Shown piece after piece: positions 34,271 to 40,169 of a DNA stretch of 64,000 nucleotides. Numbering within the stretch: position 1 is the first letter of the stretch; every line of letters begins with the position of its first letter. Under the pieces are notes generated by a model that saw nothing but the letters and a program-made list of their open reading frames with translations, did not search any database and was not told the origin of the DNA. This DNA is from Candidatus Altimarinota bacterium (GTDB lineage: Bacteria; Patescibacteriota; Gracilibacteria; BD1-5; UBA2023): contig JAQTON010000001.1 of NCBI GenBank assembly GCA_028713325.1, positions 1 to 64,000 of the forward strand. The letters are read 5' to 3'. The translations under genes were made by a program, and so were the position numbers.

Positions 34271-34424
34271 TTTGTCATTTCGACCGTAGTGGAGAAATCC
34301 CTTTTCTTCACCATATATGAAACAATACCTCCAGACGCAGAACTAATACTATGTAATTTTTTTAAGTACAGCATTGTAATCGCGATCTAAAGGGATTCCT
34401 CGACTTCGCTCGGAATGACAGTAT
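34271..34424. repeat. Two dispersed 'HSERSRGIP'-type repeats
   Basis: gtcatttcgaccgtagtgga at 34273 and, inverted, the block around attcctcgacttcgctcgga ending near 34420. These belong to the widespread bacterial intergenic repeat whose chance translation reads HSERSRGIP. They fill most of the gap between the ferredoxin and the O-antigen-ligase gene. Confidence 0.6.
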
Positions 34425-34454: not shown

Positions 34455-35723
34455 ATGTTTGACCGCATCTTCCGCATATTTCTCGTCCTCCTTCCCTGGA
34501 GCGTCCTCGGAACCGTATTTTTTGGAAGCAAGCTCGGAATCCCCGGAGTGAGTTTCTTCAAGGAGATATTTCTCGTCCTCCTTCTCGGTTTGCTCGTATG
34601 GGATTTCTGGAAGCAAAAGATACTTCCGAAATTGGACATCCTCGATTACCTCGTCGCATCGTACATAGGGTACTTGGTGATAATTACGCTCGTAAACGGG
34701 CTCGGACTCGCGTCACTCGTATACGGCGGACGATATGATTTCGAGTTTCTCATCGCCTTCCTCATCGCGAAACACGGAAGCAGTCTCCTCGCGGGAAGCG
34801 TCTCGCAGTACTTGAAGATATTCCTCCTCTCCGCGAGTCTCGCTCTTTTCGCGGGACTTCTCGTGCGGTTCGTGTTCCACGAAACGATTCTCATTCACTT
34901 TGGATTCTCTCCAAATCTCAGTAACTGGAGTTTCGGCGGAACACCGCCCATCTACCACGGAATCGATGGGGCTCGGGTCAAGCGATTTCAGGGAATCTTC
35001 GACGGGCCGAACCCCGCGGCGTATTTCCTCCTCGTGTATACAGGACTCCTGTTTCACTATTTCCGAACCAAAAAAGCGTACCATTTCCTCATAGGACTCT
35101 GGACTATCGTCCTCCTCGGACTCGTTTTCCTTACCTACTCGCGAAGTGCGCTCATCGGCATCGTCATCGGATGTTTGGCACTCGTCGTGTTTTCTCTCGG
35201 GACCATCTGGCGTCGATACAAAAAAGAAAGTCTCTTCGTGGTACTCTTTCTCGTGGTACTCTCCGGACTCTTTTACCTCCGATACGAAGGAACCATCGAC
35301 CGAATCATCCTCCGTTCCGGCTCGTCCCAAGGGCATTTCGATCGAGCGATGACCGGACTCCAAAGGTTCGCGGAACACCCGATGGGACAATGACTCGGAA
35401 CCGCCGGCCCCGCCTACCGCTATGTCGTGAAACTCTCCGAGAATCCCATCTACGGCGGGGAAATCAAGAAGACCGAGGACTACTCCATTCCCGAGAGCTG
35501 GTACATCCAACAACTCGTCGAATGAGGCGTCATCGGATTCGTCCTCTTCGTCGCCATCATGGGAACCATTGCCTGGATCCTGTTCCCGCTCTCGCCGACC
35601 TTCTTCGCCTCGTTCGTTGCCGTTCTCACCATGAATCTCTTCCTCCATAGTTTCGAGTCCGTGTATATATCCTTGATTCTGTTCTTGATTTTGGGGCTGT
35701 TTGTGGGGAAGAGGAAGAAATAA
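34455..35723 (+). CDS. O-antigen ligase-like (WaaL family) membrane protein
   Basis: 422 residues, with two TGA codons (MGQ-G-LGTAGP and LVE-G-VIGFV) joining the C-terminal third. About ten hydrophobic segments surround a periplasmic loop containing RVKRFQGIFDGPNPAAYFLLV and RYVVKLSENPIYGGEIKKTEDYSIPESWYIQQLVEGG, the pattern of the Wzy_C/O-antigen-ligase family. It would ligate or polymerise a surface glycan. It neighbours a glycosyltransferase, with the restriction-modification gene between them. Confidence 0.85.
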
Positions 35724-35901
35724 ATTTACAGAAAATATAGTTTTTTGTAAAAAATTGAAATATAATACTTGTAAAATAGAGATAAGTGAGTATATTGCTT
35801 GAAATAATAGTTCTCAATAAAAAAATTTTTAGAAAAAGTTCTAATATCCTCTCTAAAAAAAGAAGTCTTTGGATATCCCTTTAAAAATCACCACAAATAG
35901 T

Positions 35902-38619
35902 ATGTCTGAACAATTAAAACAACTAGATGCTTGAGTTAAAATTTGAAATAAATTTGAATATTTCAATTTATGAGATGTTACAATTCAATCTTTGGCAAAA
36001 GCTGGTATAATTCCAAAAAAAGATTATTGAGATTATAATATTAAGAGACCAGACTGATTACTTGTTGATAGATCAAATAAAAAAAATCCAAAAGTTATTG
36101 CGATTGTTGAGTATAAATCAACAAAGAAATTTAAAACGGAAAGAGATATTCAAGAGGCAATAAAGCAATGTAATGATTATGCACAAGTTTTGTGAGCTAT
36201 TTTTTGAGTTGCTACTGATACAAATGTATCAGCATGGATAAATCCAAAACAAGAAAATAAGGAAAATGAATACATTGATAGTTTCTGAGTTGTTAGGAGT
36301 TTTAGTTTTATAAAAGATGAGGAGAAACAAAGACTCAGTAATAACTTTTATTTACATTTACAGAAAATTCATGAAACTAATTTTGAGAAGTTATCTGATG
36401 AAGTAAAAGAAACTTTAAAAGTTATACAAAGAATACTGGATTCTGATATATGAAAAGATAATTCACAATTGAAGGATACTATTTTTGTAGATCCCACGAA
36501 CCTTGCTAAATCAGTCTGGCAAGATATTTATGTTGCAACCTGAAAAGAACCAGAGAAGTGTTTATATAATGTGGTTGAAATATTTATTTTCAAGTTTTTA
36601 AGTGACTTGTGAGTTTTAAGGGACAATTATAGCTTTGGTCACCTTATTAAGATGTTGCCAGTAAGTAGAAATATTAAGAATATTTCTCAAAAAGAATGTG
36701 AGGATATATTGAAACATTATGCGAAGATAATTAGACCGGAAATTAAAACGGTACTTTTTCCAGCAGATATAGAAGATTGAACAACTATAATGAATTGAAC
36801 TATATTTGTAAATGAGAAAAGCGATCCTGTCTTAGAATTCGCATCTTTATTTGTTAAATCTCTCATGAGGTATGATGATTTTTGAGATTTAACAAATGTT
36901 GAAAAAGCTTTTAAAACTAAATTGTATGAAACATTTTTGAAAAGAGATAGTGGGGTAAAGTGAATGGGGCAATTTTTTACGCCAAGAAAAGTTATATGAA
37001 ATATAGTTGAAATGGCAAAAGTAGAAAATCTCAAATCTTGAGCAAGGGTTTGTGATCCATTTTGTGGAGTTTGAGGGTTTCCCTTGGAAGTTATGGCAAA
37101 TAGGAAAAATAAAGATTTTCTTATAAAAAATGGAAGGATAATAGAAAATATAGAGTATTTTGGATTTGATAAATGATCAAGTGAAAAAGATAGTGAGAGA
37201 ACAATTATTTTAGCAAAAGCCAATATGCTTATTTATTTATCAGATTTGATAAAAAATAATTCAACAATTACAGAGGAATTTTCTCGTATTTTCAATAAAA
37301 CTTTTAAATTAAAAAAATGAATTTTATGAACTTTGGCAGATATTGAAGATAACGAAGAAAATAAATATGATTTAATTATTACAAACCCACCTTATGTAAC
37401 TAAATGAAGCAGTATATTAAAACAAGAAATAGAGAAAAACTGAGATATAAGTGATTTTTATAAAATTAGCTGAACATGAGTAGAATCACTAGCTATTGAA
37501 TGGATTGTAAATAAACTGAAAAAATGATGAAAGGCTTTTGTTGTAGTTCCTGATGGAATTTTGTTGAGAAATTCCGAAAAAACTTTAAGAGAATTTATTC
37601 TAAAAGAATGTTTTTTAAATTGAATAATATCTTTGCCAAATAAAACATTTTTTACTACAAATCAAAAAACTTTTATTTTAGCACTGACAAAAAAAGATAG
37701 TGAAAATCAGAAACAAATATCTCCAATTTTTACTTACTTGGTAAGTGATATTTGAGAAGAATTAGATGTAAATAGATTTGACACTTGAAAAAGTGATTTA
37801 GAGACAGCAAAAAACCTTTTTAGAATGTTTGATGGAAACGAAACTCACTTCAAAACAGAAGATAAGAGATGCAAAATTCAAAACATATCAAAATTTGAAA
37901 GTGAAAAAAACTGGATTATAGATAAATGGTGGAGTGTTGAAGAAAAAGTTCAACTATGAATTGAAAATGAAAAAGTCTCTATAGAATTGAATGATTTTAA
38001 AACTTTATCATCCGAAGCTAAAGATAATTATTTCGAGATAATTAAAAATTTTGATATTCAGAATATCGATTCAAATTATAAAGACTTTCAAGTTTGATGA
38101 GAGGTATGAATTTTTGAAGTTAGAAAATGAAAATCCGATTATACGAAGTCTTTTATAAATGAAAATAAATGAACTTTTCCAGTTTATTCGTCTCAAACTT
38201 CAAATGATTGAATTATCTGAAACATAGATACTTATGATTTTGATCATGAGTGTTTAACTTGGACTACTGATTGAACTTATGTATGAACAGTATTTTATAG
38301 AAATAATAAATTTTCTATGACAAGTCATTGTTGAGCTTTATTTTTAAAAGAAAAATATAAATGAAAGGTCTATTTACCATATGTAAGAATAATTTTAAAT
38401 CAGGAATTGCCAAATTATAGAGAGTGAGAATGAAGTAATAAAAGACTTTGAAGTAATCTTATAAAAAATATATTTGTTAAATTCCCAGTTAATAAAAACG
38501 GAGAATTTAATATTGAAGCTCAAAAAACAATATTCAATAATTTCCAAAAAGCCGAGAGGTTAAAAAAAGATATAGAAAATATTTTTTGAGATTTATTTAA
38601 TAACAATATTGTTATATAA
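35902..38619 (+). CDS. Single-chain restriction-modification enzyme (nuclease-methyltransferase-specificity fusion)
   Basis: 905 residues, invisible under the standard code because of about 46 in-frame TGA codons. Residues 1-120 hold a PD-(D/E)xK nuclease-like site, RPDGLLVD (Asp near 51) and AIVEYKS (Glu 70, Lys 72). The N6-adenine methyltransferase domain has GQFFTPRKV (about 356), motif I DPFCGVGG (about 385-392) and motif IV NPPY (about 495). From about 730 comes a type I HsdS-like target recognition domain (GTFPVYSSQTSNDGIIGNIDTY...SMTSHCGALF...LPYVRIIL). The domain order matches type IIG/BcgI-like enzymes that cut and methylate. The gene is much more AT-rich than its surroundings, yet uses code 25 heavily, pointing to transfer from an AT-rich code-25 relative. 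Confidence 0.92.
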
Positions 38620-38649
38620 AATAGTATTGAGTAGGGATATCCTATTTTT

Positions 38650-38690
38650 CTTCTATGGACTTTATCTCCTTCTGACGACCTGGAAAGAAA
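38650..38690 (+). pseudogene. Fragment duplicating the start of the glycosyltransferase gene
   Basis: The segment beginning atggactttatctccttctg matches the true start at 38766 (atgaacttcatatttttctg) in 18 of its first 25 or so positions, including the shared TTCTGACGAC. It then runs into a palindrome and a TAG. It looks like a remnant left by rearrangement or insertion. Confidence 0.5.
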
Positions 38691-38713
38691 TTTTCTAGAA
38701 AAATCATTTGCAA

Positions 38714-38755
38714 AAAAGTACATAGTACATAGTCTACTATGTACTATGTACTTTT
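38714..38755. terminator. 19-bp perfect palindrome, probable terminator
   Basis: AAAAGTACATAGTACATAG - tcta - CTATGTACTATGTACTTTT. It lies downstream of the restriction-modification gene and 10 bp before the glycosyltransferase start. Each arm also contains a direct GTACATAGTACATAG repeat. A-rich on one side and T-rich on the other, it could stop transcription both ways. Confidence 0.65.
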
Positions 38756-38765
38756 AAAACTCTCC

Positions 38766-40169
38766 ATGAACTTCATATTTTTCTGACGACTCGCGAAAGA
38801 GAAGGGGTTTGATTTGCTCGTCCGATCCCTTGAAAACATCATGCAAAAAACCGGAGAACTTCCTGGAAATTTCTTCCTGTTCGGGGAAGGAGATTTGCAA
38901 GAGATGTTGTTTCAAGCATTCGGGGAATCTCCTTTTTTTGAAGACTGTTCCTGACTTACTCCCGCAGAAATCGCTGATAAGATAGAGCTCCTCGAAACTT
39001 CGGAGGAGTGAGAAGAGTGCAAAATCTACTTTTTCGGATGGCAATCGCTCTCCACGATACGGGGCGTTTTGGAAGTGTCCCACTTTTCCCTGATGCCGTC
39101 GCGATTCCTCGAGACTTTCGGACTTTCGGCACTCGAGTCCCTCTCGGAAGGGGTTCCCGTGATGGGGTTTCGGAAAGGAGGACTCATTCCGTTTATATCG
39201 CAGGAACTTGCCGTTCCTTTTTCTGCAAGCGATGAGGAAAACATCGAAGCTTTCTCGAATACAATCGTGGAAATTTCGGAGAAGTATTCCTCTTTTTCTT
39301 CTCTCATGGGAGAAAAGGAATCCGATTGGGATGCTCTTTCGCATGAATCGCGACGAATCGCGGACAGCTACACTGAAGGGCGATGGATACGACAGGTTCG
39401 GGAAATGCTCCCATCGAACACGAAGAGGATTCTCCTCGCGAGCGATTATACGACTCTCCTCGGGGGGATAGAAACGCATGTACAAACCATTGCACGAACG
39501 CTTCGACAGCACGGGTATGAAGTGGAGATTTTCGGCTGGAACCTCCCGAAAGGACGGTTTTCGAAGGTGCTTCGTCTGGTGGGACTCGTATATTCTCTCT
39601 GTAATATCTCTTCTGTTTGGAGTATTCGCAGAAAGATTCGAGAATTCAAACCCGATGTTATCTGGCTCCATAGTGTGAGCCGATTTCTCGGACCACTGGT
39701 GGTTCGGGAGGTGGTGAATTGGGGGAAAGATAAAAAAAATTATGTGAAACATGAAATTTCTCAAAAGCGAAGTAATTTGAATGAAAAATGAGAACCGGAG
39801 TGAACTGTACGAGATAGTACAGTGAACGAGGAAACGGAATTTTGAAGTCAAAGAACGAGTTTTTCAGAAATTTCAACCCTGGTGACGTATCACGATCTTT
39901 GACTTTTCTCCCCCTTTCCTTCGGAAGTCGAGAGCGAAGCAATGATTTCGAAAAACCCGAGACTCGGAGCGTTTCTCTTCTCGGTACGCTCCAAGAATCC
40001 CATCATGTATCTCGCAACGTACTGTAAATATTTTCAAGTTTGTATTCTCAGGAAACTCCTGAAGAAAATCCATGTCCATATCGTCCCGTCGGCTTTTCTC
40101 GTTCCGCATATTCGCGATATAGAGGAAGTTCCGGAGGAACAAATCGTCGTACTCGAACATTTTCTCTAG
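38766..40169 (+). CDS. Glycosyltransferase (GT4 fold) with the two lobes in reversed order
   Basis: 467 residues in one frame, with several TGA=Gly. Residues 1-200 form a GT4 C-terminal lobe: FFGRLAKEKGFDLLVRSL at the very start, then PSRFLETFGLSALESLSEGVPV with the donor-binding E-x7-E. From about 225 a GT4 N-terminal lobe begins (KRILLASDYTTLLGGIETHVQTIARTL, PDVIWLHS, VTYHDLGLFSPFPS, IVPSAFL) and ends at VVLEHFL, where a normal enzyme would continue with FFGRLAKEKG. It is therefore either a circular permutation or a fusion of two truncated tandem genes. Residues 330-370 are encoded by palindromic element copy C. Activity is uncertain. Confidence 0.8.
39753..39874 (+). repeat. Palindromic element, copy C, in frame inside the glycosyltransferase gene
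   Basis: A 122-bp element with 9-bp perfect inverted ends (GAAATTTCT/AGAAATTTC) and a central CTGTAC-gagata-GTACAG hairpin. It encodes KRSNLNEKGEPEGTVR and TEFGSQRTSFSE in the same frame as the uvrA copy, with three TGA codons as Gly. It splits the glycosyltransferase between YVKHE and LVTYHDLG. Confidence 0.9.

What the first reader, a model, noticed from the sequence alone, without database searches (positions are those of the whole stretch)
35902..38619. A complete 905-residue restriction-modification enzyme hidden by about 46 TGA codons
Nuclease (RPDG...EYKS), N6-methylase (GQFFTP, DPFCGVGG, NPPY) and HsdS-like recognition domain are fused in one chain. Standard gene calling sees nothing over 2.7 kb. 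Nearly all its glycines are TGA, and its base composition is far more AT-rich than its surroundings.
Basis: partly seen in the sequence, partly recalled or inferred. Interest (0 to 1): 0.7.

Follow-up and report, generated by a model that had tools for sequence, protein, structure and literature searches.

The report
Foreign code-25 restriction enzyme in hotspot
The gene is a real, complete cut-and-protect enzyme (one protein that both cuts and methylates DNA) acquired from another bacterium that also reads the stop codon TGA as glycine, and it sits in a chromosomal slot where related species carry different restriction or defence-type genes.

Summary
The host does use that code: its genome has release factor 1 only and a tRNA with a UCA anticodon. 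In-frame TGA positions align with glycine in standard-code homologues in 95 of 151 cells (background 6%). Domain order is an HsdR-like PD-(D/E)xK nuclease, an N6-adenine methylase and one HsdS-type target-recognition domain (TRD), which makes it a single-chain Type IIG enzyme with HaeIV-like organisation. Its closest relatives (73-75% identity in the catalytic part, also code 25) are split into RM plus a two-TRD S gene like BcgI. Standard-code Peregrinibacteria-type relatives fuse two TRDs like AloI. So one family shows all three textbook layouts. The gene is foreign: 26% G+C against a 43% gene median, and 81% TGA glycine against 9%. It occupies the junction between an O-antigen-ligase gene and a glycosyltransferase gene. 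That junction is 18-21 bp in two sister species and holds unrelated restriction or defence-type genes in others, which suggests a genus-level restriction hotspot. The enzyme is a new member of a known kind. Homodimer action on a gapped palindrome is predicted, not shown.

The parts
35902..38619 (+). 905-aa single-chain restriction-modification gene, code 25, 46 TGA=Gly, stop TAA
35932..36246 (+). PD-(D/E)xK nuclease domain (aa 11-115); catalytic candidates D51 (36052-36054), E70 (36109-36111), K72 (36115-36117), Q89
   Evidence: Invariant D51/E70/Q89 in 8 homologues; HSDR_N_2 in 6 of 8 members; predicted strand-strand-helix-strand-strand with nuclease-fold matches
36919..37893 (+). Gamma-class N6-adenine methyltransferase domain (aa 340-664): GQFFTP, DPFCGVGG (37054-37077), NPPY (37384-37395)
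   Evidence: Pfam N6_Mtase 5.7e-31; only N6_Mtase-family (PF02384) gene found in the genome
38077..38616 (+). Single HsdS-type target recognition domain (aa 726-905)
   Evidence: Pfam Methylase_S 1.1e-14, PADLOC Specificity_I 2.5e-26; 52% identical over 113 aa to TRD2 of G325
38512..38598 (+). C-terminal helix (aa 871-899), expected dimerisation helix
   Evidence: Predicted helix in the low-confidence full model; alignment to the C-terminal S-unit ends
35724..38765 (.). 3042-bp insert (25.8% G+C) between the ligase stop and the GT start; 21 bp in G004, 18 bp in G002
38714..38755 (.). Perfect 20-bp-arm palindrome at the right edge of the insert, also at the same junction in G006 and G001 (copy b)
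34455..35723 (+). Left flank: Wzy_C O-antigen-ligase-like gene, conserved in the genus
38766..40169 (+). Right flank: glycosyltransferase, conserved in the genus, domain order permuted

Best explanation
It is a functional single-chain Type IIG restriction-modification enzyme with HaeIV-like organisation: R ~ gamma-M ~ one TRD. Predicted mechanism (inferred from the anatomy): the C-terminal TRD reads a short half-site; two chains pair through their C-terminal helices in opposite orientation, so the full target is a gapped palindrome; each methylase domain puts N6-methyladenine in its half-site; unmethylated sites are cut at a fixed distance, probably on both sides, by the N-terminal PD-(D/E)xK domain. 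The chain belongs to a family otherwise split as RM + S1~S2 (BcgI-like) or fused with two TRDs (AloI-like), and probably arose by fusing the RM gene to the second TRD with loss of the first. The gene came from a more AT-rich code-25 bacterium and sits in a junction that houses different restriction or defence-type genes across the genus.
For: Shown: open frame, homology over its whole length and TGA=Gly; host code 25 from RF1 only plus a UCA tRNA; domains; conserved D51/E70/K72/Q89, DPFCGVGG and NPPY; purifying selection, dN 0.17 against dS 0.84 to G053; split RM+S relatives G053 and G145, fused two-TRD relatives G155, G325 and G242 (= the Peregrinibacteria record); the window chain falls with G053 inside the code-25 clade (100% for the clade, 78% for the pair); TRD tail matches second-TRD tails best in the class relatives; compositional outlier and absent from six same-genus genomes; empty junction in G004 and G002. 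The 'dimer on gapped palindrome' step follows from the HaeIV and M.DrdI precedents in PMC3874165.
Against: No activity, methylome or structure data. The full-length model failed (mean pLDDT 32); the nuclease-domain model is moderate (60.5) and its matches are weak (best Foldseek E 0.013; best Z 6.3). Oligomeric state and target are not testable here. The same single-TRD layout could act as a monomer on an asymmetric site.
Confidence: 0.75

Rival explanations
1. Monomeric Type IIG enzyme (Eco57I/MmeI-like): one TRD reads an asymmetric site, methylates one strand and cuts to one side.
For: One R, one M and one TRD per chain also fits these enzymes; Pfam Eco57I also matches.
Against: The TRD is HsdS-type and ends in a long helix, the feature linked to dimerising gamma-MTases (PMC3874165); the closest relatives use paired TRDs.
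Confidence: 0.2
2. Degraded remnant: a two-TRD enzyme that lost one TRD and now only methylates or is inactive.
For: It carries half the specificity module of its relatives.
Against: 46 TGA codons but no TAA/TAG within 905 codons; all catalytic motifs kept; dN/dS about 0.2 against G053; a comparable full-length single-TRD homologue of 894 aa exists on a Geobacter plasmid.
Confidence: 0.08
3. Assembly chimera: a fragment of another code-25 genome joined into this contig.
For: Strong composition break and no copy in the same genus.
Against: The insert ends in a palindrome shared with the same junction in G006 and G001 (92-100% identity), and sister genomes hold restriction or defence-type genes at the same junction. 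Reads were not available.
Confidence: 0.04

Closest known systems
HaeIV (Type IIG/IIB, 2 x R~gamma-M~[GAY], GAY N5 RTC)
   Same: One chain with nuclease, gamma-class adenine methylase and one specificity domain (PMC3874165 Table 4)
   Different: No HaeIV sequence was compared here; window target unknown; code-25 gene
BcgI (RM + S1~S2)
   Same: Organisation of the two closest relatives of the window gene (G053 and G145), 73-75% identical in the catalytic part
   Different: The window has no separate S gene and only one TRD
AloI / TstI (R~M~TRD~TRD)
   Same: Organisation of the standard-code relatives (1042-1049 aa), about 49% identical
   Different: The window lacks one TRD; AloI-type chains are about 1250 aa (PMC3874165)
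Single-chain homologue on a Geobacter anodireducens plasmid (ANA41815.1, 894 aa)
   Same: Same R~M~one-TRD layout over 97% of the query
   Different: 28.8% identity, standard code, 52% G+C
Type I HsdM/HsdS
   Same: Methylase and TRD homologous (2okc, 1yf2)
   Different: No HsdR helicase part in the chain

Membership tests
Type IIG R-M enzyme | Gamma-class N6 MTase with an N-terminal cleavage domain in one chain | tested here: met
   N6_Mtase 5.7e-31; N-terminal PD-(D/E)xK motif conserved in 8 homologues, HSDR_N_2/HSDR_N marginal in several, nuclease-fold matches weak but consistent
Type IIG R-M enzyme | Cuts at a fixed distance from its site without ATP-driven translocation | not testable with these tools
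   The Pfam scan of the whole chain reports no helicase family; cleavage needs an assay
HaeIV-like subgroup | One HsdS-type TRD fused to the C terminus | tested here: met
HaeIV-like subgroup | Homodimer, symmetric bipartite target, cuts both sides | not testable with these tools
   Only a predicted C-terminal helix
HaeIV-like subgroup | Sequence relationship to HaeIV itself | not tested
BcgI-type | Separate S gene with two TRDs next to RM | tested here: not met
   The insert 35724-38765 holds no second gene; the RM stop is followed by 146 bp to the GT start
AloI-type | Two TRDs in the chain | tested here: not met
   One unit only, aa 726-905
Genetic code 25 | TGA read as glycine: no RF2, tRNA with UCA anticodon, TGA at conserved Gly | tested here: met
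   RF1 458 bits over cut-off, prfB 276 below cut-off; UCA tRNA at C1:506736-506811; 95/151 Gly

The most novel reading that the evidence does not exclude
The ligase-GT junction is a dedicated exchange slot for restriction systems in a genus of code-25 Gracilibacteria. Six occupied copies carry six different restriction or defence-type contents, all AT-rich and without a recognised transposase or integrase in the parts examined, and three share an edge palindrome that may take part in the exchange. Because systems such as this one are written almost entirely with TGA glycine, they can be expressed only in code-25 cells, so the slot would draw on a code-locked gene pool.
Probability: 0.3. Interest if true: 0.6.

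Novelty: new member of a known kind. Interest (0 to 1): 0.45.

Why it matters
It gives a recoded bacterial lineage a testable restriction-modification enzyme. It also shows within one protein family the three layouts of Type IIG enzymes (RM+S1~S2, RM~TRD~TRD, RM~TRD), with the single-TRD fusion 73-75% identical to split relatives, so the fusion step is recent enough to test by experiment. The shared junction suggests where these streamlined genomes accept and exchange defence genes. A gene with 46 in-frame TGA codons cannot be expressed outside code-25 cells, so it traces gene flow restricted to that code.

Tried and rejected
Structure of the whole chain from a two-row alignment failed (pLDDT 32), so only the nuclease domain was used. 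A sequence-profile search of the nuclease domain against solved structures found nothing; the TRD alone as a single sequence found nothing but its profile found an HsdS. BsaXI was not among the sequence matches to solved structures and only a weak fold match, so I do not place the enzyme in the BsaXI subgroup. Viral contigs gave no relative and phage records only the methylase part at about 25%, so a phage carrier is not supported. A standard-code host with one stray code-25 gene was rejected: RF2 is missing and other window genes also carry in-frame TGA. I first thought the glycosyltransferase had been broken by the insertion because its halves are in reverse order; sister species have the same order, so it is not a scar. 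Claiming that all restriction genes sit in this slot was rejected: other methylase genes lie elsewhere in these genomes.

Full report
CHECK. Under table 25 the stated interval translates to 905 residues with 46 TGA codons and a TAA stop. Under table 11 the strand is closed; only an antisense 168-aa frame of 100 aa or more appears. Homologues begin at the same residue, so the ATG at 35902 is the likely start, although the mechanical ORF begins at a TTG at 35869.

GENETIC CODE. The host genome (1.05 Mb, 5 contigs, 95% complete) has one release factor match, which scores as RF1 (458 bits, over its cut-off) and below the RF2 cut-off. A tRNA with anticodon UCA lies at C1:506736-506811. In the gene, TGA columns hold glycine in 95 of 151 cells of standard-code homologues, against 5.8% background. 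So the gene is ordinary to its own cell and invisible only to a table-11 gene caller. Code 25 is established for Gracilibacteria and Absconditabacteria (PMC6851277; PMC8080830). One relative in the same class is the public record MFXK01000040.1, a Peregrinibacterium, which places the host in class Gracilibacteria in the GTDB sense; I did not name the species.

FOREIGN ORIGIN. 252 genes from about 464 kb of the genome use TGA for 9.4% of glycine codons (gene maximum 48%) and have a median G+C of 43%; this gene uses TGA for 46 of 57 glycines (81%) and has 25.9% G+C. It is absent from six same-genus genomes and, at strong scores, from the same family. The closest relative, G053, lies on a contig with 21% G+C in the 20 kb read, and 35 of its 38 RM glycines are TGA, which is the kind of donor expected.

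ANATOMY. N-terminal nuclease: D51, E70 and Q89 invariant and the ExK lysine kept in eight homologues; HSDR_N_2 matches six of eight members weakly; the predicted domain has the expected core, Foldseek's best match is the Type IIG enzyme BpuSI at E 0.013, and the second look is led by restriction-endonuclease-fold chains including an HsdR, at Z 5-6, each weak. Methylase: N6_Mtase E 5.7e-31, the only gene of that Pfam family found in the genome. Specificity: a single HsdS-type TRD, Methylase_S E 1.1e-14, profile match to a solved HsdS. dN/dS is about 0.2 against G053, so the catalytic part has been under purifying selection.

FAMILY. In code-25 genomes G053 and G145 the same catalytic protein (716/718 aa, 73-75% identical) is followed directly by a separate S gene with two TRDs. 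In standard-code G155, G242 and G325 (and probably G444, a 1041-aa frame) both TRDs are fused to the catalytic part. A Rhizobium plasmid has the split form, and a Geobacter plasmid a single-TRD fusion. The window chain falls with G053 (78%) inside a code-25 clade (100%), so its fusion is best read as derived from a split ancestor, with the first TRD lost; its tail matches the second-TRD tails of the class relatives. TRDs shuffle: the second TRD of G053/G145 groups with the first TRD of the standard-code fusions (98%), and the window TRD is 52% identical over 113 aa to the second TRD of G325 although the catalytic parts are 49% identical. These layouts match the published organisations of BcgI (RM + S1~S2), AloI (R~M~TRD~TRD) and HaeIV (2 R~M~[GAY]) (PMC3874165).

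HOTSPOT. The gene lies between a Wzy_C ligase gene and a glycosyltransferase gene that are neighbours across the genus. The junction is 21 bp in G004 and 18 bp in G002. In the window it is 3042 bp (25.8% G+C). In G006 it is 1748 bp with a DUF4357 protein that PADLOC lists as PDC-S14 (a candidate defence protein). In G001 (contig 51) it is 6569 bp with a D12 adenine methylase, a GmrSD-type endonuclease, a DpnII endonuclease, another methylase and a Fic protein. Partly assembled copies hold a C5 methylase with a Sau3AI-type endonuclease (G001 contig 1), a Type II methylase (G003) and an NgoFVII-type endonuclease (G005). The inserts are 26-34% G+C and share no long DNA similarity except short pieces, chiefly a palindrome at the right edge in G000, G006 and G001 copy b. 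Three copies are spanned on both sides, three on one side only, and G001 may mix strains, so this is a strong suggestion and not a finished proof. Other DNA methylase genes also occur elsewhere in these genomes. Horizontal-transfer hotspots and a type I R-M island in Patescibacteria are known (PMC5635113 abstract; PMC12455944); my few literature searches found no paper describing this junction.

MECHANISM. Shown: intact, conserved, selected gene with all motifs. Inferred: C-terminal helices pair two chains head to head, giving a gapped palindromic target, N6-adenine methylation of both strands and fixed-distance cuts. The rival is a monomer on an asymmetric site.

VERDICT. The enzyme is a new member of a known kind; the junction is the more novel part.

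Noticed in passing
38766-40169: Glycosyltransferase with reversed domain order (GT group 1 domain at aa 11-179, then family 4 N-terminal domain at aa 242-316, numbered from 38739); the same order is kept in one frame in several same-genus and same-family genomes.
   Followed up: partly
39758-39880: Roughly 120-bp palindromic repeat inserted in frame in the glycosyltransferase (about 49 extra aa relative to sisters); about 17 further similar copies in 464 kb of this genome, resembling in-gene palindromic elements known from Rickettsia (from memory).
   Followed up: partly
38714-38755: Perfect palindrome AAAAGTACATAGTACATAGT-CT-ACTATGTACTATGTACTTTT at the insert edge; found at this junction in three genomes of the genus and nowhere else in the sampled part of this genome.
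   Followed up: partly
35872-35881 and 38634-38643: GGATATCC-containing stretches in inverted orientation just outside both ends of the R-M gene.
   Followed up: no
34273-34420: 32-bp inverted repeat (84%) upstream of the ligase gene, possibly another interspersed repeat.
   Followed up: no
G000:C1:214241-215296 and G000:C4:23869-24816: Further DNA methylase genes of the same genome (N6_N4_Mtase with 14 TGA; C5 methylase with 4 TGA), outside the window.
   Followed up: no
L098:862-7175: Sister species G001 carries a DpnII-type system, a GmrSD-type endonuclease (17 TGA, 26% G+C) and a Fic protein in the same junction.
   Followed up: partly
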